64,000 nt of DNA from Pyropia yezoensis (taxonomy: Eukaryota > Rhodophyta > Bangiophyceae > Bangiales > Bangiaceae). The translations under genes and the position numbers were made by a program. Below, in pieces: positions 18,734-52,238 of the stretch (its first letter is position 1; each line of letters starts with the position of its first letter). Where the stretch lies: NCBI GenBank assembly GCA_009829735.1, contig CM020619.1:28484063-28548062 (forward strand), written 5' to 3'. The notes below the pieces were generated by a model that saw nothing but the letters and a program-made list of their open reading frames with translations, ran no database searches and was not told the origin of the DNA.

Positions 18734-18739
18734 AATTGG

Positions 18740-19378
18740 GGGGGTTTACCGCACACCTCGGACTAGGGGCATCCCCCTTCAGGGGGAGGCGGATCGTGGC
18801 GACCTTTGCCCCTGACCAATCGGGGGCAGGAGTGGGTCGCTCCTCCCTCGGGATGGGCACGCCACATCATCCTCCCTGGATCCCCCCCATGAATGGGTAG
18901 GGAAGATAACATAATATCGGGCAGAGCGATTCCGCTCACCCGATTGGAATTGGCCTTCAGGCCAGTGCAGGGAAGTTACCTAGGGCGGGCTACTTCCTCC
19001 CCAATCTGGCCGAGATTCAGTGAGATCCCACCACTGAGCGTGTTTTGCGTGGAGAGATGTGTTGGAGGGCTCTGAGTGTTTTGATTGGGTGTTTAGTGTA
19101 GGGAGTGTGGGCCCGCACTCCGGGGTCCCACAGCGGGCCCTGGACCGGCGGGCCCAAGAGGGATATCTGCGCGTGGGGCTGTGCCAGTTGCTTCCCCCTC
19201 ACAAAAAATCAACCTTGCGTTACCCTCGCGTTCCCCGGCCCGGACGCTTTCACCTTCGCGTGGAGCTCTACGTTCCGGCGGCTCTGACTCCAGGGTTTAT
19301 ACCCCGGGTTCCCCACCATCTCCTTAAGGAGGATAAGGTACCCCGTTGGTGTGGGCTTACGCCCAGATAACCGCCACA
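18740..19378 (+). repeat. R2 5' LTR, left edge uncertain
   Basis: The right edge is set by CCACA followed by TT and the shared primer-binding site. The left edge is not marked by a TG terminus I can defend; it lies between the Copia gag start (18733) and the first hairpin (about 18765). Inverted repeats such as AGGAG...CTCCT (about 18810) and CTGGCCT-like arms (about 18950) are already present. Confidence 0.5.
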
Positions 19379-19380
19379 TT

Positions 19381-19394
19381 TGGTGGAGCAGCAG
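19381..19394 (+). promoter_or_regulatory. R2 primer-binding site
   Basis: TGGTGGAGCAGCAG, two bases after the LTR end, identical to the site in R1, R3 and R4. Confidence 0.8.
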
Positions 19395-19529
19395 GGGAGG
19401 GGATTCGCTCCGCCTTCTGGTGGAGTCTCCTCTCCTTTTGTTGGGTGGTTTTTTGGTCGTGTGCTCTCTGGTCCCCACCCGTTGTGACCCTTGGTACCTT
19501 TTCTTTCTTGCTTTTACAGGTGGGTCGAG

Positions 19530-21385
19530 ATGCAGTCTGATAATTCTGCTCCTCCTCAAGGAGGAGGTCCTACACCGGTGGAAACGTCAAACGTGACAGC
19601 AGGCACCGGCGAAGCTCCCGGTGCCGCCTCGCGGACCAACCCTGGTGTTGAGTCGGCCGCTCAGCGGGAACGTACGAGTTTGTGCAGTTTGGACCTGCTT
19701 CCGGGTGGAGTGCCAGGCGCCGGTGAGGCTCGCAGCCTGGCACATGCCACTTTAGGCGCGACCCCTGACGGGGAGGCAGCCCACGGCTTCGGCGACCGCT
19801 CTACCTTTACCTCCCGTGAGTGGGGGGCCTGGGCCTTACCCGCGGGGGAGGGTACATTTGCATCGCCCACCCAGGACCGTATGGATACGGATAGTTTTAG
19901 AGGCGCCCCTTTGGGGGGCGTACCCGCTGTGGGGGGGTCGTCCTCCACGGCTATGGGAACTGTTACTCTGGCGGCTTTCCGCCAGATGTGGACTCAGGTG
20001 GTGTCACCAATTTCTGCTCGACTCGATAAGGTCGAGGGTTCAATCTCTCGATCTGGTCGGCAGACTCGCCGCCGACCGCACGGTTATTCGCAGACATCTT
20101 CCTCTTCAGAGGCAAGTGATGTTGATCCTGAGAGACGTGGGGCGAGGCGCTTAAGCGCTTCGGCCCACCGCCGGGTGGCCCGTGTGCTATCCCCGGGATG
20201 TAACGGGGAACCGGAGCGGGTTATCCCGCTCAAGATAATACCCGATGATGATACCTTTAAAGGTATCCTGGATTGCGAGTCTTATGCACTCGCCAATAAG
20301 AGCGTACGCTATGATGAAGAGATGGCTCACGGCTTAGGCCGAAAGCGCAAAGAGATATCCCTCACGTTTGGGCGTGACGCCCTTTGGGACGGGACCCCCC
20401 CTCTAGGGGTGTTCGAATTTCTACATCGCTTTCGTAAGGCTAGCGATGACAACGACCTCTCAGAAGGTCGGGCTATGTACCTCCTTCCGGAGTTTACCAA
20501 AGGGGAACTCAAGAAGGAGCTCCTCTCCCTCATCCCCTCTAAGGCGGGGGGACGAGCGGGAGAGGTCACTTCGTATCTGGAGCTGGTTAACTGGCTCCTC
20601 CGCAGTTATGCGGACGCGGAAATTATATCATCCCAAGTGGCAGCGTTTAATAACGTTGCCCAAGAGGAGGATGAAACTGAAACCGCCTTTTACGGGCTCG
20701 TCCGCGACGCAAATGCGCTCTGCGGGTATATACATACTGCGAGCCAACTTGAGGGCCGCCTTATTCAAGGGGTCTGGTGGGAGGACGGACTGATGTCCGT
20801 GAATTTAATACACCAGACACGCCCATAAAGGCGTTGGTACGATATGCTCAACGCAAAGGCGACATATGTCGCCGGCGCAATGAGGAGCTGCGGGCCCAAT
20901 GGTCCGCAGACGCCGCGGAGCGTCGGGCTCGACGCAACGCCTCTAAAGGCAATGCTGCGGGGGTGGCTACTCCCCCCAGCGGTTCCTCTGTACCTTCGTT
21001 GTACGGGGGGAAGGCCAGAGTTGGCACTGATGCCGGAAGGGAGCGTTTAAATCGCTACCCCTGCTTGGCTTGTAATAGCCATGAGCATTTTACGCGCCAC
21101 TGTCCCGACCTTAGTGTCGAGACGCGGGCTAAGTTTGAGAAAGCCCGTAAGGAGCGCGCTCGGGTTGAGGGCCGTTCCCCGCGGGGTACGGCGAGGACAG
21201 CGCAGCCCGTAGCGGTTGTCACTGAGGGGGGGCCTTCGGGCGCCCCTAAAGGGGGGCTTGGCCCCCAGGAGAATATTGAAGAGTCAGAGGACTCTTCATC
21301 TGAGGATACCCCCTCCTCAAAAAACGATGAAGAGGGAGGCCTGATGAGGAATATTCCTCCCCCGGGGAAGAGGATGTCGTGTTGA
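19530..21385 (+). pseudogene. R2 gag, one frameshift
   Basis: The ATG at 19530 follows a pyrimidine-rich stretch. The frame runs to about 20780, where the reading continues one phase over (VREFNTPDTPIKALVRYAQ) to a TGA at 21383-21385. The nucleocapsid zinc knuckle CLACNSHEHFTRHC (about 21061-21102) is a perfect CX2CX4HX4C. The central part (GVFEFLHRFRKASDDNDLSE) matches R3 and R4 gag. It would package the RNA and build the particle. The pol frame overlaps the gag end in the -1 phase from 21331. A slippery AAAAAAC stands in correct phase at 21319-21325, but the -1 frame meets a TGA at 21328, so this copy could not use it. Confidence 0.85.
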
Positions 21386-24300
21386 AACGCATCTTACCCC
21401 GACCTCGTGAGGTGAAGCGTAAGATGGTCCGCCCTAAAGGGAAGGACGAAGCCAAACAAGCAGCTCGGATGGTGGCATTAGTGTCACCACCCACGGCTTA
21501 TCAATTAGCCGTACGGCGTTTTATTACTAAGGGATATGAATGGGCGACGAGGGCCATTCTCGATACCGGGAGTGGCGCTTCACTCGTCCGGAAGCAGGCA
21601 TTACCTCGAGGGTTCCCTATGGAACCCCTGGGAGACCTGGAAACCTTAAGGTTTTATGATGTGAACGGGGGATGGCTCCCCATAGTGGGAAGCGTCACCC
21701 TGGGGGTCTGTGTGGGAAAACAAATCTCATACACATCCTTTGGCGTGGTTCCGAATATGTGCGTCCCTGTACTCCTGGGGAACACATTCGTGGACCACGA
21801 AACTAAGAGTATTAACTCGGATGACCAGACGGTCACCCACTTATCGGGGGAGACCGTCCCCATCCTGCGGGGGGTTCAGAAGAACCCCCGCCGCAAGCCG
21901 AACAGGGAGGCGGTGTGTGCGTGTCCCCGGGGGGGGAACGCCCGCCTGGCCCTTTCCCAGAAGACGCTTATGCGTCCGGGTACGATTGCGCACGTTCAAG
22001 TGCGTGGCAACTTTCAAGGCCACGGATACATCCGTGGCAAGAGCACATTGCACTCCATTCATGGAGCGCAACTGGCCGAGGGGCCCGCCACGCTTAAGCC
22101 TGGCCAGCCTACTACGGTACAGGTTATGAATCCGACTGAGCGGCCGGTACGTTTACGTGCCGGCATGGCCATAGGACACATTAATGTGTTTGATGGCGTC
22201 AGCCACGAGGCTTCCACCGAGGAGTTAAAGGATCCGGAGCCGAAACCGGCTCCGAAAGAATCCTCCCTTGCCACAGGCATAGACCTGGGGACGGTGCCAG
22301 AAGGCCTACGAGCTAAGCTCACGGCACTTTTAGAAAGATAAAATTCTCTCTGGGATGGCACCCTCGGGACTATCAAAGAGGCGGTACACCGTATCCGGCT
22401 TAAGCCAGGAGCGGTCCCCGTCCGACAACATCCCTATAAGTCTGGTCCTAGGACCCGTCTAGTTGAAGAAGAGCAAGTCCGATTAATGGACTCGCTCGGG
22501 GTTATAGAACCCTCCCACGGGGATAGGGCTAGCCCCGTGGTAATCGTCCTCAAGCCTGGGGGCGGTAAACGATTTTGCATCGACTACCGTCGTCTTAATG
22601 AGATGACGGTGAAGGATGCATATCCTATCCCGCGTATGGACGAGTGCTTAGATTCACTCGGGAACGCCAACGTCTTTTCGACGTTGGATTGTAATGCTGG
22701 CTACTGGCAAATACCGGTAGCCGAGGAGGACCGGCCGTTAACAGCCTTCACGTGCCACTCTGGCACATGGCAGTGCAAGCGCCTCCCTTTTGGGTTGTGC
22801 AATGCACCAGCCACCTTTCAGCGTGCCATGGACATGATCCTGGTAGGCGTGAAGTGGCAGATATGCCTCGTCTAATTGGATGACGTTATTGTCTTTTCCA
22901 AGTCGGCGGAGGATCATTTAGAGCACCTTGAGACGGTGCTCTCCCTCCTCAAGACCCATGGGGTTTCCCTCAAGGCCAACACGTGCCACCTCTTTCAAGA
23001 GGAGGTCGACTACCTCGGCCATGTCATAATACCTGGCCGCGTTCTCGTTAACGAGAAAAATACGAGAGCGCTACGAGGGATGCAATACCCTCGTACACAA
23101 GCCCAGATGAAAGGTTTTCTGGGGGTGTGCGGCGTCTATCGGCGCTTCGTACGGGACTTCGCCAAAGTAGCGAAGCCCCTAACCGCGCTGAGAAGTACCA
23201 AGCTTCCTACGAAGCTATCTCCCCCCACAGAGGTGGAGAGGAACGCTTTCGAGACGTTACGGGGGCTGCTTCTATCACCCCCCGTATTAGCGACACCTTG
23301 GATGGGCGGCCACTATATAGTGGACGTGGACGCGAGCTATGAGCAGCTCGGCTCTTGTTTGTTACAACAGCAACCCGACGGGGAAAACCTCCCTGTAGGG
23401 TATTACTCCCGGCCGTTGAACCCGGCCGAGAGAAATTAGAACGTCACCGAGATTGAAGCGCTCGGTGTTGTATGGGCCGTGACACACTTACGATCCTACC
23501 TTGAAGGGGAGGAATTTGTAATAAGGTGTGATCACCGTGCCCTTTTGTCGGTGCTGGCTACAAATAGCCCAAACATACGGAATAACCGTTGGCGGCTTCG
23601 GCTGTCTGAGTTCACCTACAAACTCCGGTATAAACCGGGGGCCGACCATAAGGTGGCCGACGCTTTGTCACGCCTGCCCACAGACGAGCCTTACAAGGCT
23701 CCTATCGATGCGGACCTTCCGGTCATCGCCACGGTGACCAGGTCTGCTCAGGCTTTGGCCGGGCGGGGCGAGAAGCATCGCCCTTTGGGGCCTATTACGG
23801 TAGAGGAGCTTATAAATGCTCGGGCTGGGGACACCTTCTGCCTGGGACGGCGGAAGGAATGGGAGTCGGTACCTCCCCCAGACCCAAAATGGGCCAGGAA
23901 GGCTTTCTTCTTCGAGAACGAAGAAGGAATACTATGCCGGAGGTCCTTCTTCCTGGACACCACTCAGATGGTGGTCCCCACATCTGTAGAGGAGCGTCTT
24001 ATGACGTGCCACCATGAATTACCATTGGCGGCCCATCCTGGGGCTCGCCAGATGTACGCCACGCTGAGGCGTGGGGTCTACTGGCCCACCATGATTGTGG
24101 ACGTTTACAAACACGTCTCCCAGTGCACGGGGTGTGCTCGGAATAGGCTGGATGAGCGTAGGCATACGTCTACGCTCAAGCTATTCCCAGCTAACGAGCC
24201 CTTCGCCAGTCTGGCGATGGATATTCTCGGACCCTTACCCGCTTCTGAAAACGGTGTCAGGTTTATAGTTGTTATGGTGGACCGTTTTAGTAAGCTCACC

Positions 24301-25387
24301 CGGGCGGTCCCCATGAATGAGATTACCGCGGTGGCAGTGGCTTCGGCCTTTATTGACGTCTGGGTAGCGTCTTATGGCATACCCGACTCAACGCTGACCG
24401 ACAACGGTCCGCAGTTTGCTTCCGTCTTTTTCCAGAGGGACTTAGGACTCCTAGGGTTTGAGGCAAAGTAAACGACGCCTTACCACCCCCAATCAAACGG
24501 GCAGGTGGAGCGATATAATCGCACTTATGAGGCAGCTCCGGGTTTATACCGCGGAGCACCCAAAGGATTGAGACCGTTATGTTTCACTCCTGACAACGGC
24601 CTATAACACTCGAGTGCATTCTAGCACTGGGCAGGCCCCCCTCATGTTTGTGAGCCCAAGGCGGCTCCAAACAATGGCGGTCGAGCGCCTCCCGAAGCTC
24701 CGTCCTCTTAAGGAGAAGGAGGACTTGGGGGAAGGCGAGGATGAGGACTCCCAGACCGCAGCCTTACGGTTTGTGGAAGACCTGAAGAGTATTATCCCCC
24801 AGGTGCGTAAGCACCTGGCCAAGGCGCAGGAGGCGTATAAGAAAACCTTTGACGCCACTGTCGCGGAGAAGAATAAGGACCTACGGGAGGGAGACTGGGT
24901 TTTCCTGGCCTCCCATGCCCGTAAGCGGTCTAAGCTCGCTCATAAGAGCGTGGGCCCCTACATGGTCTTGAGGACCGATGGGCGACGTTTCACTGTGGAG
25001 ACCCCTTCAGAGATCCGAACGAGTACGAGTGACCATGCCACTCGTGCCCCGGCGCCCCAAGCAGGCCATCCTGCCTGGGCACGTGCCGAGGCAACATGAG
25101 CCAACTTTAAAGAGGCTCAGCCCTCCTCGAGTACAGGGGATGGCAAAGAGTACGTGTTCGAGAAGTTTGTGGACCACCGCTTTAATGCGGAGCGGGCGCT
25201 TGAATTACGCATACGCTGGTTCGGCTATGGCTCCCAGGTTGATACCTGGCGCCTAGCAACGGGTTTGCCGGCTGAAGCCGTGCGAAAATATTGCAGAAGA
25301 AGGAAGCTTAAAATTCGGGTTACCCCGAGTGGCACCTTCTTTTATGCAACGGCACTAAAAGGCAAGGGGCCGAAGCTTGGACTTTAA
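21331..25387 (+). pseudogene. R2 pol: protease, RT, RNase H, integrase, chromodomain
   Basis: Domains in order: aspartic protease AILDTGSGASLV (about 21553); reverse transcriptase with FCIDYRRLNEMTVKDAYPIP (about 22574) and the LDD of the active site (22876); RNase H (about 23310-23700); integrase zinc finger (H...H...CTGC, about 24010-24140); catalytic core with MDILGPLP, TDNGPQFAS and QVER (24217-24515); chromodomain FEKFVDHRF...IRWFGYG (25154-25260). Nonsense codons: TAA 22339, TAA 22873 (at the Tyr of YLDD), TAG 23437, TAA 24469, TGA 24569 and TGA 25097; a one-base shift lies near 24520. The frame ends with TAA followed at once by TGA (25385-25390). Integrase catalytic residues are still present. 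Confidence 0.9.
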
Positions 25388-25390
25388 TGA

Positions 25391-25971
25391 AAGTCGCCCT
25401 CTCTCATCTCTCCCGCCGACTGTGACGACTACGCTTGTCATCAAGATCACAAGGAGGACCCCGTTGTGCACGATCACTCTGCGCTATCATTGTGGGAAAA
25501 TGTTTTGCTTCACGACCGTAAGGTCGTGGGTTCAGGTTGACGGCATCAGTCGTCGACCTTCCCCGAGAGGCTATCACCTTCGTGAGGAAGCGCAAGGCTG
25601 ACGACGATGGCGGACGCCATCGTCGTCGCCAGAACCTTTTGCGTCGACCCCATATGGGGTCGCCTTGCTAACGGCGTCGATGGCGTACGCCTCGACCGCC
25701 GTTTACACTGGTACCGTGGTACCACTTGGCCAATTCACCCGCCAGGAGGGGGTGGTAGACGCGTACGTTTACACGTGTGCGTGGCTTGGCACGTGGCCGT
25801 CGTCACCCCCACGGGGGTGCACAGGCACAGGGCGTGCTAGCAGAGTGACGGGAGAGGGTCATAAGACCCTCCCACTGTTGCCGCCCTTGACGGTGGCAAC
25901 AACGACCGCTCGCCCTTGTCCTTGGTGGAGTCGTGCCGATCCTCGTCCATAGGGACGAGCGGTACGCCCCG
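25391..25971 (+). other. R2 3' non-coding hairpin array
   Basis: A chain of near-adjacent inverted repeats. A 12-bp perfect stem with a 4-base loop lies at 25600-25627, and an 18-bp perfect palindrome CGACCCCATATGGGGTCG at 25645-25662. GGCGTACGCC at 25682-25691 sits inside a larger imperfect stem (25670-25703). AGGGTC/GACCCT is at 25855-25870, an imperfect 9-bp stem at 25878-25900 and CTCGTCC/GGACGAG at 25942-25959. No gene is seen. Confidence 0.75.
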
Positions 25972-26671
25972 TGTAGCGTTATGGCCCTTCTGGCCCAGGG
26001 TCCACACACACAAGAAACCACAACGGGGTCAGGAAGGAACGGGTAAAGGTCCCAGCGTGATCCACTCGCCCGCCCCTTCAGAGGCAAGGGTAAAAGGACA
26101 AAAGCCCGAGGGAGCAAGAACCCAAAGAACCGTTGATTTTACAAGTTTGCCCCGGGGAGACCCCGGAGCACCCCTCAAGAACCCCCCCCTTGGCCCCTCC
26201 TGGGGCCTGGAGCGGGGCCCCTAGAGGGCGCCTCTAGCGGGTCGAGCGCCAGCAAGGCGTCTGACCTCCACCAGGTCCTCCAGCGCATCCCCCACACCGG
26301 GGTGACACTGGGGCGCCGAGGGTCACCAATCAACCCCCGGTCGCCAAACACAAGCGAAAAGCAAGCGAAAATCCCCCCACACACAGATGCCAATCCCCGA
26401 AAAAAACCCAGTGGGAAAAAGGGGAAAGACACGAAAACACGCAGTGAAAACAAATACGAAACGAGTGGCCACAATGGCCAGTAAGGCCACCCCCACCGGC
26501 CAAATCCGCCTCCCTGGGTGGGACCAATCAGGAATCCGGGTGTGTCGCCACAATCCCGAGTCACTGACAGAGGGGGCCCCGGCAAGAGAAGGGCTCCACG
26601 TAGGATAGCCCGCCGGGTCCCAAGTCACCTTCCCAAGGGCCCGCCTGTCCCCAAAGGCTCAGAACGCCACA
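25972..26671 (-). repeat. R3 3' LTR
   Basis: Minus-strand termini TGTGGCGTTC...GCTACA. Aligns almost base for base with 34945-35643. A G-rich tract (TGAGGGGGCC, read on the minus strand from about 26681) precedes it as a candidate polypurine tract. Confidence 0.92.
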
Positions 26672-34944: not shown

Positions 34945-35643
34945 TGCAGCGTTATAGCCCTTCTGGCCCAGGGTCCACACACACAAGAAACCACAACGGG
35001 GTCAGGAAGGAACGGGTAAAGGTCCCAGCGTGATCCACTCGCCCGCCCCTTCAGAGGCAAGGGTAAAAGGACAAAAGCCGAGGGAGCAAGAACCCAAAGA
35101 ACCGTTGATTTTACAAGTTAGCCCCGGGGAGACCCCGGAGCATCCCTCAAGAACCTCCCCCTTGGCCCCTCCTGGGGCCTGGAGCGGGGCCCCTAGAGGG
35201 CGCCTCTAGCGAGTCGAGCGCCAGCAAGGCGTCTGACCTCCACCAGGTCCTCCAGCGCATCCCCCACACCGGGGCTACACTGGGGCGCCGAGGGTCACCA
35301 ATCAACCCCCGGTCGCCAAACACAAGCGAAAAGCAAGCGAAAATCCCCCCACACACAGATGCCAATCCCCGAAAAAAACCCAGTGGGAAAAAGGGGAAAG
35401 ACACGAAAACACGCAGTGAAAACAAATACGAAACGAGTGGCCACAATGGCCAGTAAGGCCACCCCCACCGGCCAAATCCGCCTCCCTGGGAGGGACCAAT
35501 CAGGAATCCGGGTGTGTCGCCACAATCCCGAGTCACTGACAGAGGGGGCCCCGGCACGAGAAGGGCTCCACGTAGGATAGCCCGCCGGGTCCCAAGTCAC
35601 CTTCCCAAGGGCCCGCCTGTCCCCAAAGGCTCAGAACGCCACA
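34945..35643 (-). repeat. R3 5' LTR
   Basis: Minus-strand TGTGGCGTTC...GCTGCA. Partner of 25972-26671. Confidence 0.92.
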
Positions 35644-36123
35644 CGCCCGCCAGGGCGCCGCTGCAGTTACGCCCGCTCCCCCACCCCGAGTTAAAACGGC
35701 TGTTGCCGGGCATCCTGGGTTTTCAGGGCCGCGCCCCATCCGCATTGGCTGAGCACGTTCAATTCGATCCGGCGCTGAAGCAATTCTGACACCGCATTGG
35801 CCTATCCACAGTCTGTCAGGTTTTTTCCTTTACTTCTGCATCAAGCACCACACAATCATTGGAAAATGCACACGTGGTCGCCATAGCCCTCGTTGCAGCC
35901 GTCTGTGGGAGGTCAGATGGGAGACATTGGAGAACAGTTCATGCCGGGGAGTCGCGACTCGTCGAAAAATCGCTGCACGGACCACAAACTGTCTTCATCG
36001 TGTCGCGCTGCAAGCCCCTCCCGCCTCGCCGCGACCGCCGCCGGCCCACCCCACCCCCTCCATCACTCACACCCCCCGGCCCTATCCCCGTTAGCTCAGT
36101 AATCGTTAAAGTAAAAAACCATA

Positions 36124-36666
36124 TCACTCGTCACCGCATCCCGTACCAGGAAGGTCAAAAAGGGGGGAGGTTGGTGCTGGCGGTGTCACTGAGCGTCTGG
36201 GGGGAGTGCGGTCCCCCCAAGACGGCCCCCAAGCCACATCCGGTGCCGGTGGAAGCAGGTCAAAAAGGGGGGAGCTCGGCGCTGGGGGCGTCACAGAGCA
36301 TCCTGGGGGGGTCCGTTCCCCCTGCGCCCAACCCACATCAGACGCCGACGGCGCCGACAGTGGCTCACGCGACCGCGGCGCATGCCTGCGACGGGAGCCT
36401 CCCCGCGCACGCCCCCCAGGTGCCTCCCAGAGACGCGGAGGAATTCCGTATACGAACACCTCCGGGATACGCGGGGCGACGAGAGGGGAGCTCTCGTCGC
36501 CCGACAGGGTCGGGTGGGTCGGGGGGGGGCTCAGGGGGGTCAGGGGGGGGCTTGGGGGGGTCGGCGCCGCAGTGGCGCGGCGAGGCAGCAAAAGCTTGGT
36601 GCTGCCTTTTGGGCGACAGGGACGCTCACGTAATGCACTATACGACCGAGCTTCCGCTTGATCCAC
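36124..36666 (-). pseudogene. Transposon A copy of the downstream proline-rich frame
   Basis: Counterpart of 51326-51793 in copy B. 180 codons with two repeats of a unit ending SVTPPAPxSPLFDL, and Arg/Pro-rich flanks. In A it sits directly after the deletion junction (about 36604) and is joined to other upstream sequence. Whether it is translated is unknown. Confidence 0.35.
36140..36345. repeat. Tandem repeat within transposon A
   Basis: Two imperfect copies of a unit of about 105-110 bp. Each starts AGGTCAAAAAGGGGGGAG (about 36151 and 36258) and contains a GTCAC(T/A)GAGC core. The same pair exists in transposon B near 51580-51765. Confidence 0.7.
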
Positions 36667-37509
36667 ATCTCAGATGGAGTTGTGCGCAGCAATACCGTGT
36701 CCACAATTAATTGCAGATTAGGTCCATTCGCGTCATTCCAAAAGTTCCCGGCCCGTAATTTCCGAAGAAATTCCGTGACCATGCGGGACCCGTCCGGTTC
36801 GCTCTGAGCCACCGCTAAGGCATTAGCGTCCGGCATCGGAGCGGGTGGAGTCGCAAGGGCGGCGGCCAGCTCCTCGCGGAGCTTAACTGCCGCCGCGCGC
36901 TCAAGCGCCAGCAGGCGCTCGGCGCGCACCACGCGCTCCTGAAAGTTTTTTAAACTAACTGCCGAAAGAGGACAGGCGGGGCATGAGCCAGGGGAAGGGA
37001 ATTCGGAAAGGGGGGGTTCGGGGGAAGGGGGGGGGTCAGGGGAGGGGGCAGAGGTTGGGAAGGGGGGGGGGGGGGAGGAGGGGGGGGAATAGGGGGAGGG
37101 AAGGGGATGGGGGGCGGGTGGTGGGTTGGGGATGGGGGGGGGGGTAGGGGGAGAGGGGCAAGTCATTGCTCCTTGACATTGGTTGAGAGGAAGTGGGGAG
37201 GTGTGGTGCCCGCCTTGCTTGGCGGTAGCACCGGTCGCATACCCCGTGGGTAAGGCCGTGGCCATCCGGCCCCAGGTTTGTCTTGCAGAACCTTGCGGGC
37301 AGCGCGGCCACCGCCCGACCAGCGGCCGTCTCCGCAGCCTCAGGCAGTTGCCTCCATTTTTCGAGGCCAACCCCCCGCTTGAGGATTACCCCGCCGCAGG
37401 GGGTGCAGAAGAACGCGAGCACCTTCTTAGAAAAGACATTCTTTATCTCAAGAAGGGACAAGCTGCAAAACGACACGGTAAAAAAGCAAGAGAAAAAGAC
37501 CGTGTCCAC
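36600..37509 (-). pseudogene. Transposon A transposase, N-terminal fragment
   Basis: Matches the first third of the transposon B protein: FFCTPCGG...FCKTN...CDRCYRQ (putative zinc-binding Cys clusters), a proline-rich linker, and the ERVVRAERLLALERAAAVKL helix. It ends at VAQKA at the deletion junction. The phase changes inside the C/G homopolymer-rich linker relative to copy B. The DDE-like core is missing. Confidence 0.7.
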
Positions 37510-37549
37510 GTCCGTGCCAGGACATTACCCAGAACAGTAAAGCAGTATG

Positions 37550-37554
37550 GCCAC
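37550..37554. repeat. R4 target-site duplication, left
   Basis: GCCAC directly before the 5' LTR; the same five bases follow the 3' LTR at 46430-46434. Transposon B shows the unoccupied site (near 47800) with a single copy. Confidence 0.92.
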
Positions 37555-47343: not shown

Positions 47344-47840
47344 TGGGCGCCCCTAGCTAAGGTGGGCATCCTGGTTTTTGTTTACATCACTCTTTCCAGC
47401 AGACGTGGAGGCCTGCCACTGGCTGGAGCAAACATTGGGAGCACTTTCGTGCCCCTAATTTTTGGTCACCGCCCCACAGAGCCCGTGAGAGGGCGATGCG
47501 TCGCACCGGCGTCTTCCGCGTCCAGTTCTTGCGCATCCACGTCCCCATAGCACCCAGGGTCTGCGACCGGTGGTCGACCACCCCGGCCGCGGCGCTATTT
47601 TTATCTCTACCCCCTCACCACTCACCCTGCCGTCCCCACTCCACCTGACCGATCACCCTGCTTTTCCTCCTCCCCCTGACTGTGCGGCTGTGGCATCGCC
47701 GGATGGGTGAGCCGAGCGCCGTGAGTGGTCGAGCGATAAGGTGAGTGGTACCTTGCACCATGCATTTAATTTTTTTCCGTGCCGCTTTCCGTCTGGTGGC
47801 CATACTGCTTTACTGTTCTGGGTAATGTCCTGGCACGGAC

Positions 47841-50610
47841 GTGGACACGGTCTTTTTCTCTTGCTTTTTTACCGTGTCGTTTTGCAGCTTGTCCCTTCTT
47901 GAGATAAAGAATGTCTTTTCTAAGAAGGTGCTCGCGTTCTTCTGCACCCCCTGCGGCGGGGTAATCCTCAAGCGGGGGGTTGGCCTCGAAAAATGGAGGC
48001 AACTGCCTGAGGCTGCGGAGACGGCCGCTGGTCGGGCGGTGGCCGCGCTGCCCGCAAGGTTCTGCAAGACAAACCTGGGGCCGGATGGCCACGGCCTTAC
48101 CCACGGGGTATGCGACCGGTGCTACCGCCAAGCAAGGCGGGCACCACACCTCCCCACTTCCTCTCAACCAATGTCAAGGAGCAATGACTTGCCCCTCTCC
48201 CCCTACCCCCCCCCATCCCCAACCCACCACCCGCCCCCCATCCCCTTCCCTCCCCCTATTCCCCCCCTCCTCCCACCCCCCCCCTTCCCAACCTCTGCCC
48301 CCTCCCCTGACCCCCCCCCTTCCCCCGAACCCCCCCTTTCCGAATTCCCTTCCCCTGGCTCATGCCCCGCCTGTCCTCTTTCGGCAGTTAGTTTAAAAAA
48401 CTTTCAGGAGCGCGTGGTGCGCGCCGAGCGCCTGCTGGCGCTTGAGCGCGCGGCGGCAGTTAAGCTCCGCGAGGAGCTGGCCGCCGCCCTTGCGACTCCA
48501 CCCGCTCCGATGCCGGACGCTAATGCCTTAGCGGTGGCTCAGAGCGAACCGGACGGGTCCCGCATGGTCACGGAATTTCTTCGGAAATTACGGGCCGGGA
48601 ACTTTTGGAATGACGCGAATGGACCTAATCTGCAATTAATTGTGGACACGGTATTGCTGCGCACAACTCCATCTGAGATGTGGATCAAGCGGAAGCTCGG
48701 TCGTATAGTGCATTACGTACGCGTCCCTGTCGCCCAAAAGGCCGAGGTCAACAAGCGCCAAGTGAACCAGCGCCTGGCGTTTGGCCGGCAAGTGCTTGGC
48801 GCGACTGGGGTTGACGGCACCTCTTTGTCCCCCAAGTCGCGCAAGGGGAAGCAGCCACGGACGCTTTGTCGGTTGTCAGTAGAGGAGCAGGTGGGGATGA
48901 TCGCAACGGTTGGGGTCAGCTCGTCCCAGTACGACAAAATCCGACGCGGCTTCGGTGCTGCTGAGAGCGGCATGGCGAGTCTACCTGTTCTTCGCGCGAA
49001 GCGGCGCCGCCTTGAGGGCTTGGAGTCAAAGAGGGTGGTTGTGAATAGCACTGGTGCCCATCTGGCGGGTCTCCGCGACGCCGTGCAGGAGAAGGTGGCT
49101 GCGTTGTGGGATTCTGGCTCTTTCGTTGAGCGGCTTCTTCATGACAAGGAGGCTCGGCCAATTGCGCAGACAGACGACTACGTTGTCCCAGCAGCGGACT
49201 CTGGCAGCCCATGGGCCGTCATCCATCCTCCGCAAGTGAAGGACGTCCAAGTGACGCTCGGTCTCGACAAGGGCGGTGATCCCAGCTCCGTCAAGATCGT
49301 AGCTTCCATCATCAACCAGCGCAAGCCGAACAAGCTTGAAAGCACGATTCTGGTGCCTGTCTGCCCTGCCAGCAAAGACAAGCATGAGCAGGTGTTACCT
49401 ATGCTGGCCGGTCACCTGCCGCAGATTGAGTTGCTGCTTAGGGATGGTGTCCTGGCTGGCGGTAGTCGGCGAGCCGGGCGTCTCTTCAGCGCGGGTGACT
49501 ACGATGCCCTGTGTACTGTGCATGGGCACAAAGGGCCAAAGTGCGACGATGCCCTGCCTCGGGTGCTGCAGCACAAGGGCTCCAAGCGCAACAAACGCTG
49601 CTCTTGGCGCCAAGTACGGCACTCTACAAGACGTGACGGGCGCCCGGCACCTGCGGTCGCATTCCCATATTCTCGCCACGGAGGCGGCCCACGTGCTTCC
49701 AGAACCGCTGCCCAGTGAGCAGCCTGTATCGAAGCACCTCTCTATTGAACGGCTTCCCCTGCTTAAAGGGAACCCGCGGCAGATCGTGCCTATTCCCCTG
49801 CACCTTACTCTGGGAGCAAACATGCGCTTTCTGCGACTCTGCGTTGAGCTTGTGATCATGTGCACGAGCCCAGAGGTAGGCAAGACCTACGCCAAGGGAC
49901 TTGCCGAGACGTTGAGGCGGTCCGTACGAGTTCAACCTTCACCGTACCACGGGGGCATCTTCATCGGCAAGGACTGCGACACCATCGCGGTAAGAAGGGA
50001 TGTTGTGGTGCACACGCTCCTGGGAGTGGTTCCTGACGCCGACTACAGGGCGGCCAAGATGGTTTGGAATCTGTAGGACAAGGTGAGGAGGACACTGAAC
50101 CGAGCGGACACTGTCGATGAGGAGGAGATCAAGGCCTTTCGCTCCAACACGACCGCCCTCGTGACCTGGCTCAAGAACAAGTTCCCGTGGCTTATTGTTT
50201 CTCCTAAGATGCACATCCTCCTCTACCATGCACCTGACTTCCTGGAGCGGTTTAGAAGTCTTGGGCTCTACGGTGAGCAGGCCATTCAGGCGTGGCATGG
50301 CCACTACAATCAGAACGCGAACAAGTACACTGCCGAGACTGAGCTTCAGTCGGCGGCCAAGCTGGTGCGGGACAAAGCGCTGGCGAGAGAGGCTGGAGAC
50401 TGGAGACCAAATAGTGCTACCAGGAGAAGGCCCGCGAAGCCTGGAGCGAGGTTGGCGACCAAGGCCGGCGACAAGCGGCTCCGCGAGAACAAGGAAGGTC
50501 TGCTGCACAGCGACGCCATGTTGGAAAAGAGCATTCATGATGGATCGCGGTGGGCATCGTCCGTCTACGAAGAGAGCCTCCGGACTACGTCTGTTTTCTC
50601 GCGGGCTTAG
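47841..50610 (+). pseudogene. Transposase-like protein of transposon B (DDE-like, one frameshift, one stop)
   Basis: The frame opens without an ATG near 47841, perhaps after the splice-acceptor-like TTTTGCAG at 47880-47887. N-terminal Cys clusters (FFCTPCGG, FCKTN, CDRCYRQ), a long proline linker, a basic helix region, then a conserved core: VTLGLDKGGDPSSVKIVASI (about 49251), SAGDYDALCTVHGHKG (about 49489). After a one-base shift near 49540 it continues to a TAG at 50074 and then SPKMHILLYHAPDF and LGLYGEQAIQAWHGHYNQ (about 50200-50310). GLDKGGD, GDYDALC and YGEQ suit an Asp/Asp/Glu catalytic set. I recall similar GDKGGD...GEQ proteins as uncharacterised in invertebrate genomes. Calling it the transposase rests on position and terminal repeats. 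Confidence 0.6.
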
Positions 50611-51325
50611 CGTAAGCGCAAAGATTTTTGTAAGAGATAAACGGAAGAGACGTACCGAGAGTGACCTTGTATGCAAGGCGCCATGTTGGAGGTGCGCTGG
50701 GCTGGGGCGCCCGTTGAACAGCTGCACCGGTCGCTCGGTGAGCACTTTGGACTCTCCCGCAGAGGGGAGGGCAAACAGGTCACATTGCTGGCTTGAAGAC
50801 GGGGTGCGACAGTAATCGAACTGTCGTCAAACTCCCGAAGTACATTCGTCGGCCGGCCTGATTCCACCAATGATACACTAGGATTTCCTCAGGGAAAGAA
50901 CTTATGTATCAAGTAGATTGTTTCCCACTCAGTTGCGTCGCCCACTACCTCTTCCATGCCAGACATTCTCCAAGCTGCCGCACCCTGCCCAGTCGTGCCG
51001 ACCTGGTAGCTGTCGCTCCTCCCCCCCATGTCCCTTTCCCCTCTCTTTGTGCTTTTTCCCTCTCTCCTCCCCCCCCTGTCCCTGTCCACTCTTTCAGTTC
51101 TCCCCCTGCCCTCCGCCCAGTGCGTGGTCGCGTGCGCAGAATGGCGCAGTCAAACCACCGCAGCGCTGGCGCCGAGCGTTGTACGAGGTGCGTCTGCGTC
51201 TGGGCTCGTACATGTAGCGTGTAGCGTGTGTTTCTCTTCCTTTCTCTTATCATGGGACAGAGTTATCGGGCAGTCACTGATGTGGATAATAACTCTCATT
51301 TTTCTTTCTTTGCAGCACCAAGCTT

Positions 51326-51793
51326 TTGCTGCCTCGCCGCGCCACTGCGGCGCCGACCCCCCCAAGCCCCCCCCTGACCCCCCTGAGCCCCCCCCCGACA
51401 CCCCCGACCCTGTCGGGCGACGAGAGCCCCCCTCTCGTCGCCCCGCGTATCCCGGAGGTGTTCGTATACGGAATTCCTCCGCGTCTCTGGGAGGCGCCTG
51501 GGGGGCGTGCGCGGGGAGGCTCCCGTCGCAGGCATGCGCCGCGGTCGCGTGAGCCACTGCCGGCGCCGTCGGCGTCTGATGTGGGTTGGGCGCGGGGGGA
51601 CCGGACCCCCCCAGGATGCTCTGTGACGCCCCCAGCGCCGAGCTCCCCCCTTTTTGACCTGCTTCCACCGGCACCGGATGTGGCTTGGGGGCCGTCGTGG
51701 GGGGACCGCACCCCCCCCAGACGCTCAGTGACACCGACAGCACCAACCCCCCCCCTTTTTGACCTTCCTGGTACGGGATGCGGTGACGAGTGA
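51326..51793 (+). CDS. Proline-rich frame in transposon B, possible 3' exon
   Basis: 156-codon plus-strand frame beginning after a strong splice-acceptor-like TTTCTTTCTTTGCAG (51301-51315) and ending TGA. It has two repeats of GDRTPPxxSVTPxAPxxPLFDL. The same frame survives in copy A. It may be the last exon of the transposase or a separate product. The opposite strand is also open over 354 codons (51150-52214), so coding is not proven for either. Confidence 0.35.
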   Translation: MLPRRATAAPTPPSPPLTPLSPPPTPPTLSGDESPPLVAPRIPEVFVYGIPPRLWEAPGGRARGGSRRRHAPRSREPLPAPSASDVGWARGDRTPPGCSVTPPAPSSPLFDLLPPAPDVAWGPSWGDRTPPRRSVTPTAPTPPLFDLPGTGCGDE

Positions 51794-52238
51794 TATGGTT
51801 TTTTACTTTAACGATTACTGAGCTAACGGGGATAGGGCCGGGGGGTGTGAGTGATGGAGGGGGTGGGGTGGGCCGGCGGCGGTCGCGGCGAGGCGGGAGG
51901 GGCTTGCAGCGCGACACGATGAAGACAGTTTGTGGTCCGTGCAGCGATTTTTCGACGAGTCGCGACTCCCCGGCATGAACTGTTCTCCAATGTCTCCCAT
52001 CTGACCTCCCACAGACGGCTGCAACGAGGGCTATGGCGACCACGTGTGCATTTTCCAATGATTGTGTGGTGCTTGATGCAGAAGTTAAGGAAAAAACCTG
52101 ACAGACTGTGGATGGGCCAATGCGGTGCCAGAATTGCTTCAGCGCCGGATCGAATTGAACGTGCTCAGCCAATGCGGAAGGGGCGCGGCCCTGAAAACCC
52201 AGGATGCCCGGCAACAGTCGTCTTAAGTACTAGGGGTG

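What the first reader, a model, noticed from the sequence alone, without database searches (positions are those of the whole stretch)
18740..25971. An entire retrotransposon (R2) is saturated with small perfect hairpins, coding regions included
Perfect inverted repeats recur every few tens of bases along R2. Palindromes: GATACCTTTAAAGGTATC 20250-20267, GAGGAATATTCCTC 21346-21359, ACACATTAATGTGT 22176-22189, CTCGTTAACGAG 23044-23055, CCACTATATAGTGG 23310-23323. Stem-loops: 21278-21297 (8 bp), 22019-22038 (9 bp), 22667-22687 (8 bp), 22920-22942 (8 bp), 23072-23095 (8 bp), 23907-23926 (7 bp), 24154-24177 (8 bp). R3 and R4 encode the same domains and do not look like this. Protein function is preserved, so the pattern must come from synonymous choice or from a mutational process such as template switching in reverse transcription that perfects quasi-palindromes. 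The hairpins end where the R3 LTR starts, so they are a property of R2.
Basis: seen in the sequence. Interest (0 to 1): 0.87.

Follow-up and report, generated by a model that had tools for sequence, protein, structure and literature searches.

The report
Retrotransposons written in family-specific mini-hairpins
Several related jumping genes in this genome carry dozens of tiny DNA/RNA hairpins inside their protein-coding sequence, most families with their own preferred loop, which looks like a hidden second code kept up by evolution and has no precedent that I know of.

Summary
R2 (18740-25971) holds 38 perfect inverted repeats (stem >=7, loop <=10) against 3.4 in dinucleotide shuffles. Its coding parts hold 50 (stem >=6, loop <=8) against 13.4 in synonymous-codon shuffles. 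R3 and R4 show no excess. It is a clade property: 8 of 19 retroelement sequences sampled are clearly rich, all within one well-supported group of 10. The new result is a family-specific loop. R2 and its relative L029 use tetraloops centred on TA (43 of 306 TA cores in R2), L031 uses N-(A/T)-N triloops (40 of 42), and L032/L038 use N-A-(C/G)-T-N pentaloops (62 of 326 in L032); control cores sit at 0-5%. Between R2 and L029 the arms diverge less at fourfold sites, pairing is kept and changes are balanced between arms, which fits selection on pairing better than one-arm template copying. Dead copies lose stems at the neutral rate. Own-integrase targeting is not supported. Best guess: repeated binding sites for an element-encoded nucleocapsid-like Gag. 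The strand acted on is unresolved.

The parts
18737..19378 (+). R2 5' LTR (TG...CCACCACA in other copies); few hairpins in the window copy
   Evidence: repeated as 3' LTR in L011, L012, L022
19491..20828 (+). gag-like ORF 1 (445 aa), no Pfam match
20777..21385 (+). gag-like ORF, second frame (202 aa), no Pfam match
21062..21103 (+). CCHC zinc knuckle CX2CX4HX4C, the only one found in the window with open flanks
21379..24471 (+). pol frame with in-frame stops in this copy (RT, RNase H, integrase)
22549..22845 (+). RVT_1 (first part)
   Evidence: Pfam PF00078 E 3.8e-19
23227..23436 (+). RT_RNaseH_2
   Evidence: Pfam PF17919 E 1.2e-14
23974..24147 (+). Integrase_H2C2
   Evidence: Pfam PF17921 E 1.5e-13
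24193..24453 (+). rve integrase core
   Evidence: Pfam PF00665 E 1.3e-7 (just under the curated cut-off)
18772..18787 (.). hairpin stem 7 loop 2
19549..19566 (.). hairpin stem 8 loop 2
19602..19625 (.). hairpin stem 8 loop 8
19967..19986 (.). hairpin stem 8 loop 4
20055..20077 (.). hairpin stem 7 loop 9
20214..20231 (.). hairpin stem 7 loop 4 (TTAT)
20250..20267 (.). palindrome stem 9, centre TTAA
   Evidence: fully paired in 11 of 15 other copies covering it
20424..20448 (.). hairpin stem 7 loop 11
20858..20873 (.). palindrome stem 8, centre ATAT
21277..21298 (.). hairpin stem 9 loop AGAG
21346..21359 (.). palindrome stem 7, centre ATAT
   Evidence: fully paired in 4 of 17 other copies
21610..21627 (.). 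hairpin stem 7 loop CTAT
21641..21654 (.). palindrome stem 7, centre TTAA
21787..21801 (.). hairpin stem 7 loop 1
21867..21891 (.). hairpin stem 7-8 (21870-21889 loop AGAA)
22019..22038 (.). hairpin stem 9, tetraloop TACA
   Evidence: used as the search word for copies, so its presence in them is by selection
22176..22189 (.). palindrome stem 7, centre TTAA
   Evidence: 0 of 21 other copies fully paired (mean 5.6 of 7)
22235..22254 (.). hairpin stem 8 loop AAAC
22515..22540 (.). hairpin stem 8 loop 10, identical stem in L029
22667..22687 (.). hairpin stem 8 loop 5; C-G pair replaced by G-C in L029 (double change)
22920..22942 (.). hairpin stem 8 loop 7, shared with L029
23042..23057 (.). palindrome stem 8, centre TTAA
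23072..23095 (.). hairpin stem 8 loop 8
23310..23323 (.). palindrome stem 7, centre ATAT
23445..23467 (.). hairpin stem 7 loop 9, shared with L029
23686..23701 (.). hairpin stem 7, tetraloop TACA
23907..23926 (.). hairpin stem 8 loop AGAA
24153..24178 (.). hairpin stem 9 loop 8; same centre, different stem letters in L031
24203..24217 (.). hairpin stem 7 loop 1
24799..24818 (.). hairpin stem 8 loop GTAA
25025..25045 (.). hairpin stem 7 loop 7
25511..25528 (.). hairpin stem 7 loop GTAA
25600..25627 (.). hairpin stem 13 in the window copy (one pair less in the other copies shown)
25645..25662 (.). palindrome stem 9, centre ATAT; a DNA transposon sits at its central TA in L016
25709..25724 (.). 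hairpin stem 7 loop 2
25804..25819 (.). hairpin stem 7 loop 2
25854..25871 (.). hairpin stem 7 loop ATAA
25876..25901 (.). hairpin stem 7 loop 12
25942..25959 (.). hairpin stem 7 loop ATAG; largely re-paired with other letters in L020

Best explanation
R2 belongs to a lineage of Ty3/gypsy-type LTR retrotransposons in which natural selection on the active elements keeps up dozens of short hairpins per element, spread over coding and non-coding parts. Each is a loop of preferred size and composition (R2: N-T-A-N; L031: N-A/T-N; L032, L038: N-A-C/G-T-N) on a stem of about 4-9 Watson-Crick pairs of arbitrary sequence. In the genes, synonymous choice is needed for most of them. Individual hairpins come and go; density and loop type persist within a family and differ between families. 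The most likely use is a repeated binding site for an element-encoded protein, with the CCHC nucleocapsid part of Gag as the candidate, that collects or condenses the element's own nucleic acid during particle assembly and reverse transcription. SHOWN: the excess, the loop types, the clade, persistence with balanced changes, neutral decay in dead copies.
For: Excess over synonymous shuffles in five families (R2, L031, L032, L029, L038). Core specificity in coding sequence: R2 TA hairpins 32 of 228 v shuffle mean 3.5, max 10 in 300 shuffles; L032 A[C/G]T 28 of 148 v 3.0, max 8. Exclusivity: R2 TA 43/306 and A[C/G]T 1/135; L029 16/150 and 0/72; L038 0/139 and 21/152; R3, R4 and nine other sampled elements 0-5 hits each for either core. 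L031 triloop centre A or T in 40 of 42. R2 v L029: 29/73 fourfold sites changed in arms v 116/206 outside (P=0.02); 73-77% of pairs kept v 60% for random pairs; arm changes more balanced than binomial (P=0.006). In dead R2 copies stems break at the general rate (269 v 275.9), so they matter only in active lineages. A CCHC knuckle is present in R2, L031, L032 and L038 and was not found in R3 or R4.
Against: The signal is nearly strand-neutral, which a sense-RNA function does not predict. G.U is not clearly favoured over A.C (231 v 203 pooled in 8 families, expected 216/213; 20 v 17 among pairs broken between R2 and L029). In the A[C/G]T families A.C even exceeds G.T (44 v 24), while in R2 copies G.T exceeds A.C (31 v 20, 33 v 16, 28 v 12; not independent). 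R2 folds equally well on both strands. The three loop types are each closed under reverse complement, although L038 prefers ACT (17/82) to AGT (4/70). Compensating double changes between R2 and L029 are only slightly above random pairs (5/178 and 7/184 v 2.1%). No protein-nucleic acid contact was tested. Knuckle status is unknown for L044-L046 (the stretches fetched showed none) and for the nine distant elements, and other CCHC proteins abound in this genome. L046 is hairpin-rich without an identified core.
Confidence: 0.4

Rival explanations
1. A mutational process: the reverse transcriptase of this lineage switches template at short hairpins, copying one arm onto the other, so quasi-palindromes are made and kept perfect during retrotransposition; selection only removes harmful ones.
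For: Stems are exact and strand-neutral; the lineage is defined by its pol genes; stems do not improve once copies are integrated, as expected if the process acts only during retrotransposition. Homogenisation could also lower divergence in arms. Template switching is a published way to create and maintain hairpins (PMC8794818, abstract and start of introduction seen).
Against: Changes between R2 and L029 are balanced between arms, not one-sided. Loop identity (TA, A/T, A[C/G]T) is not predicted by simple switching. In L032 the density in the 3' non-coding part (17 in 2.3 kb) equals that in the gag-pol stretch (38 in 5.0 kb; 7 in the 1.6-kb 5' part), although a frame-blind process should be filtered in genes. 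In R2, though, stems >=7 are denser in the 3' non-coding parts (4.9-5.4 per kb in the ORFs, 5.6-14 per kb beyond).
Confidence: 0.22
2. Selection for a globally folded RNA genome (as in genome-scale ordered RNA structure) against nucleases, RNAi or antisense pairing, with no specific reader.
For: Local folding energy exceeds shuffles by 7.6 kcal/mol per 120 nt in R2, close to phage MS2 (8.8). Set against the baseline of R3 and R4 (sense less folded by about 1.0), the rich families are shifted towards the sense strand.
Against: Loop letters would not be so specific; the antisense strand folds equally well in R2, whereas MS2 favours the sense strand (-1.47 +- 0.72); no clear G.U excess.
Confidence: 0.14
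3. A DNA-level role on both strands (cruciforms or single-stranded cDNA hairpins of either polarity), for a resolvase-, integrase- or silencing-type factor.
For: Reverse-complement-closed loop types, equal folding of both strands, ACT:AGT 48:49 pooled over four families, no consistent G.U preference; two TA-type DNA transposons sit at or near R2 hairpin centres, sites as good as the best 1.3% and 6.2% of R2 positions.
Against: L038 is strand-biased in its loop (17/82 v 4/70, P=0.009); dead integrated copies show no maintenance, so any DNA role is in the replication intermediate.
Confidence: 0.16
4. The hairpins are preferred landing sites of the elements' own integrase (self-nesting).
For: The loop lengths 4 and 5 and the symmetric centres recall target-site consensus sequences of integrases (recalled). 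Of two L032-type insertions in R2 that could be scored, one lies at a site as palindromic as the best 6% of R2 positions (the other 24%).
Against: R2 makes 5-bp target duplications at sites without a TA-centred hairpin (judged by eye; GTAGC in L023 lies in a short GC-centred palindrome), although its hairpins have 4-nt loops. L032's target duplication is GTCCG, and the left flanks listed for its LTRs (about 100 of 1995, read by eye) do not carry the A[C/G]T core. Four insertions of another LTR family in R2 avoid hairpins.
Confidence: 0.03

Closest known systems
Dispersed packaging signals of ssRNA phages such as MS2 (PMC4751978, abstract and outline seen)
   Same: Many degenerate hairpins along a coding genome; MS2 is also hairpin-rich by the same counts, 16 v 7.0.
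   Different: R2 is richer (65 v 12.0); loops differ between families and are closed under reverse complement; no strand preference shown; no coat contact shown; retrotransposon, not an RNA phage.
Template-switch hairpins (PMC8794818, abstract and start of introduction seen)
   Same: Perfect stems kept up by re-pairing changes.
   Different: Changes here are balanced over both arms and the loops have preferred letters.
Coding palindromes in Nematomorpha mitochondrial genes (PMC6649704, abstract and outline seen)
   Same: Inverted repeats embedded in functional coding sequence.
   Different: There long perfect repeats (up to 284 bp); here 5-13 bp stems with a loop type, in a nuclear retroelement.
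Retroviral NC zinc knuckles binding stem-loops in the packaging leader (recalled; related titles seen in listing)
   Same: CCHC protein and hairpin loops.
   Different: There a few leader hairpins; here dozens over the whole element.
Ty3/gypsy chromovirus-type LTR retrotransposons
   Same: LTRs, 5-bp target duplication, RT-RNase H-integrase order.
   Different: Hairpin saturation; not seen in the related families R3 and R4.

Membership tests
Ty3/gypsy LTR retrotransposon (R2) | two LTRs with TG..CA ends | tested here: met
   other copies L011, L012, L022; the 3' LTR is absent from the window copy
Ty3/gypsy LTR retrotransposon (R2) | RT, RNase H, integrase in that order | tested here: met
   Pfam
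Ty3/gypsy LTR retrotransposon (R2) | short target-site duplication | tested here: met
   5 bp: ACCAC in L012, GTAGC in L023 (solo LTR); imperfect in L022
Chromovirus | C-terminal chromodomain | tested here: inconclusive
   no Pfam match in the 161-aa C-terminal piece; several relatives carry PF00385
Dispersed packaging signals (MS2 type) | many hairpins spread over the genome | tested here: met
Dispersed packaging signals (MS2 type) | shared loop motif | tested here: met
   not found in L046
Dispersed packaging signals (MS2 type) | read on the genomic (sense) RNA strand | tested here: inconclusive
   G.U v A.C, folding of both strands, loop symmetry: no consistent strand
Dispersed packaging signals (MS2 type) | bound by the coat/Gag protein | not testable with these tools
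   none
Genome-scale ordered RNA structure | folding energy below shuffled controls | tested here: met
Genome-scale ordered RNA structure | excess specific to the sense strand | tested here: not met
   R2 difference +0.10 +- 0.35; L032 -0.81 +- 0.42 leans to sense
Template-switch hairpins | multi-base changes confined to one arm | tested here: not met
   balanced arms, P=0.006, 22 R2/L029 comparisons with three or more changes, shared or overlapping hairpins counted more than once
Integrase target palindromes | element insertions centred on the hairpins | tested here: not met
   flanks of L032 seen on one side only
Known Rfam RNA | match above gathering score | tested here: not met
   two weak matches, both far below gathering score

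The most novel reading that the evidence does not exclude
A lineage of retrotransposons carries a second, structural code overlaid on its genes: some 40-60 mini-hairpins per element whose loop obeys a family-specific rule closed under reverse complement (TA; A/T; A[C/G]T), so the same signal stands on RNA, on both cDNA strands and in duplex DNA, and it co-evolves with an element-encoded reader. When a family changes its reader, all sites along the element are rewritten.
Probability: 0.35. Interest if true: 0.95.

Novelty: categorically new. Interest (0 to 1): 0.85.

Why it matters
LTR retroelements are thought to mark their genome for packaging mainly with a structured leader (recalled). Here whole elements, genes included, appear to be marked dozens of times, with a loop that differs between families of one genome. 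If mutation is the cause, it is a reverse transcriptase that writes palindromes with a chosen centre. Either answer bears on how retroelement genomes are recognised and on how far a second code can be laid over protein-coding sequence.

Tried and rejected
Rejected: chance or base composition. Amino-acid sequence alone: the synonymous shuffle lies near the codon-order shuffle in L031 and L032 (ratio 0.88-1.05) and above it in R2 (1.20-1.53) and L038 (1.21-1.27); the ten control elements range over 0.80-1.36. Self-targeted integration; the idea came from the symmetric loops. Ongoing perfection of stems in integrated copies. Known RNA families. Relatives in viral contigs: none confirmed. Not resolved: strand; I first read a purine bias beside the L032 core as strand-specific, but the A-before/T-after enrichment is symmetric. 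Knuckle status of L044-L046 and of the distant elements. Host identity: actin closest to animal actins, then Dictyostelium, among PDB chains; not pursued. Literature: seven searches listed nothing on hairpin-saturated LTR retrotransposons among the 8-20 titles shown each (5); apart from listings only the outlines and abstracts of three papers were seen.

Selection effects: the R2 copies L001-L028 were found by a word that is itself a hairpin (22019-22039), so that hairpin's conservation is not counted as evidence. Only 20 of the 46 places found were taken as 10-kb stretches, plus 8 short loci. In one search I left out the short loci L002-L008, whose places lie inside longer ones, and L029-L032. 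L029 and L030 were chosen as the most diverged R2-like hits; L034-L043 as intact-looking frames from a capped list (150 of 3595 candidates scored). L029's 5 kb holds upstream DNA that does not match R2, so family figures use its last 3.3 kb. The 22 arm comparisons were typed (three or more changes); one hairpin is in twice (rows 883 and 884). With two changes, 13 of 15 rows have one in each arm (counted by eye).

Full report
WHAT IS THERE. The window lies in a 107.5-Mb assembly (G000, contig C2), eukaryotic by its LTR elements and actin genes. R2 is an LTR retrotransposon: 5' LTR 18737-19378, gag-like ORFs with a CCHC knuckle at 21062, then RT, RNase H and integrase. The window copy is dead (stops ending at 22341, 22875, 23439, 24471) and its 3' end is missing where R3 begins at 25972; other copies continue about 1.1 kb to a 3' LTR. 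The search word found 46 places in the genome; the 21 copies laid on the window are 93.0-95.5% identical to it, and some have frames up to 1355 aa.

THE OBSERVATION. All 12 quoted repeats are real. Against five dinucleotide shuffles R2 has 65 v 12.0, 38 v 3.4 and 19 v 1.2 repeats at three thresholds; the other four parts of the window lie at 0.8-2.2x. In coding parts, with stops held fixed, R2 has 50 v 13.4, 30 v 4.7 and 16 v 1.5 against 100 synonymous shuffles; nine other long ORFs of the window show no such excess. L031 and L032, whose pol frames are open over 1314 and 1327 codons, give 26 v 7.4 and 28 v 8.1. Shorter frames of L029 and L038 give 11 v 3.2 and 22 v 7.3.

A CLADE, NOT ONE ELEMENT. 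RT-integrase stretches of 19 elements were compared. Eight are rich (2.4-3.7x at stem >=6, loop <=8): R2, L029, L031, L032, L038, L044, L045, L046. Nine are at 0.4-1.4x: R3, R4, L034, L036, L037, L039, L040, L042, L043. L035 and L041 are at 2.1x and 1.8x. In a tree of RNase H-integrase all eight rich rows fall in one group of ten with support 100/100, together with R3 and R4; the remaining nine form a distant group. The tree needs two changes of the label, so one gain with a loss in R3/R4, or two gains, are both possible.

THE LOOP. Physical loops of stems >=6 are mostly 4 nt in R2 (29, v 5 of 3 nt and 2 of 5 nt), 3 nt in L031 (15 v 2 of 4 nt and 2 of 5 nt), and 5 or 3 nt in L032 (8 and 6 v 3 of 4 nt); the rest of the window gives 37, 25, 18 and 24 for 3-6 nt. 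The R2-like 3.3 kb of L029 gives 1, 7 and 4 for 3, 4 and 5 nt. The centre is specific. With a test that skips the pair next to the core and asks for at least 5 of 7 Watson-Crick pairs, R2 has 43 of 306 TA cores in hairpins but 1 of 135 A[C/G]T; L029 16 of 150 and 0 of 72; L038 0 of 139 and 21 of 152; eleven hairpin-poor or weak elements give 0-5 hits for either core. In the nearly complete L032 element 62 of 326 A[C/G]T cores qualify, against 1/70, 4/368, 3/219, 8/267, 9/363 and 9/230 for other core pairs. In coding sequence alone: R2 TA 32 of 228 v shuffle mean 3.5 (max 10 of 300), L032 28 of 148 v 3.0 (max 8). In L031 the middle base of the triloop is A in 27, T in 13, C in 2 and G in 0 of 42. 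L046 is rich without an identified core; L044 and L045 show A[C/G]T weakly (9/83, 5/88). In L032 pairing is strongest at pairs 2-5 from the core and fades by about pair 11, and pair 1 (0.32) is little above background (0.25), so the loop is N-A-S-T-N.

HOW IT EVOLVES. R2 and L029 are about 76% identical over RT-integrase. Ten of 28 L029 hairpin centres coincide with R2's (rotation mean 1.1), with double changes such as C-G to G-C at 22674/22680. One centre (R2 24153-24178) is shared by R2, L029 and L031, with different stem letters in L031. Otherwise the families share few centres: in the five pairings among R2, L029, L031 and L032 that involve L031 or L032, tolerance 2 gives 1-4 shared centres, two of them above rotation at P<0.05. 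So density and loop type persist while sites turn over. Arms differ less than the background (0.16-0.17 v 0.243); fourfold sites 29/73 in arms v 116/206 outside (P=0.02); pairs kept 130/178 and 141/184 v 60% for random pairs; double changes to another Watson-Crick pair 5/178 and 7/184 v 2.1%; changes balanced between arms (sum of squares 34 v 83.8, P=0.006, over 22 hairpin comparisons with three or more changes, shared or overlapping hairpins being counted more than once). Among 22 R2 sequences, 1809 singleton changes were found; those in paired columns break pairs at the general rate (269 v 275.9) and make pairs at the general rate (37 v 32.9). So stems are kept only in active lineages. One copy, L020, has a hairpin re-paired by several clustered changes; recombination with a sister element may explain it.

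WHICH STRAND. Folding excess per 120 nt is -7.6 sense and -7.8 antisense in R2; the sense-minus-antisense contrast is +0.10 +- 0.35 in R2, +0.15 +- 0.47 in L029, -0.18 +- 0.42 in L031 and -0.81 +- 0.42 in L032; R3 and R4 show about +1.0, so against that baseline the rich families lean to the sense strand. MS2 gives -8.8 and -7.3, contrast -1.47 +- 0.72. G.T v A.C neighbours of cores: 231 v 203 pooled over eight families, expected 216/213; among pairs broken between R2 and L029, 20 v 17. In selected A[C/G]T hairpins G.T 24 v A.C 44 (P=0.02), in three R2 copies 31 v 20, 33 v 16 and 28 v 12 (not independent): opposite directions. ACT:AGT is 48:49 pooled, but 17/82 v 4/70 in L038. I conclude that no strand is established; the loop rules are each closed under reverse complement.

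MECHANISM. Own-integrase targeting is not supported: target duplications are 5 bp and the sites are not the hairpins (one search listed about 100 of 1995 matches, left flanks only, read by eye). Six LTR-element insertions inside R2 score as follows for palindromes within 2 bases: two of L032 type as good as 24% and 6% of R2 positions, four of another family 61-99.7%; two TA-type DNA transposons 1.3% and 6.2%. Template switching explains exact, strand-neutral stems but not balanced arms, loop letters, or equal density in genes and 3' non-coding DNA of L032. I favour selection for a repeated site read by an element-encoded protein. Gag NC is a candidate because R2, L031, L032 and L038 carry CX2CX4HX4C knuckles in the gag region, while none was found in R3 or R4; knuckle status of the other rich families and of the distant group was not established. 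That NC proteins bind hairpin loops in RNA and DNA is recalled knowledge, not tested here.

NOVELTY. Seven literature searches listed no hairpin-saturated LTR retrotransposon among the titles shown. The nearest kinds are dispersed packaging signals of ssRNA phages, template-switch hairpins and coding palindromes of Nematomorpha mitochondria (outlines and abstracts). As far as these show, none has a loop type that changes between families and is closed under reverse complement. I therefore rate it as categorically new as an observation, with the mechanism open.

Noticed in passing
L016 (sense strand), between R2 25653 and 25654: A ~1.03-kb DNA transposon with ends CAGTGCGTACGC and a TA duplication sits exactly at the centre of an R2 palindrome.
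   Followed up: partly
L023, at R2 20403-20406: A ~240-bp element with ends (G)TGTCTATTCTAC and a CTAG (or TA) duplication lies inside a weak (5-bp) R2 hairpin.
   Followed up: partly
window 25972-26671 and 34945-35643: R3 has LTRs about 98% identical; the 3' remainder of R2 is not found downstream of R3, so the junction is not a simple nested insertion.
   Followed up: partly
window 27920: An end of the L032-type LTR lies here; 1995 matches to an LTR-start word in the genome show that L032 is a very abundant family.
   Followed up: partly
L020, R2 25942-25959: Hairpin carries several clustered substitutions that largely re-pair the stem, one as G.T.
   Followed up: partly
L035, L041: Weak hairpin excess (about 2x at stem >=6) outside the main clade, with no TA or A[C/G]T core.
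   Followed up: no
window 35691-37554 v 47796-52226: Several long inverted repeats of 98-100% identity, probably nested retroelement copies.
   Followed up: no
L049: An uninterrupted host actin frame of 371 codons, closest to animal actins in the PDB; the host was not identified.
   Followed up: partly
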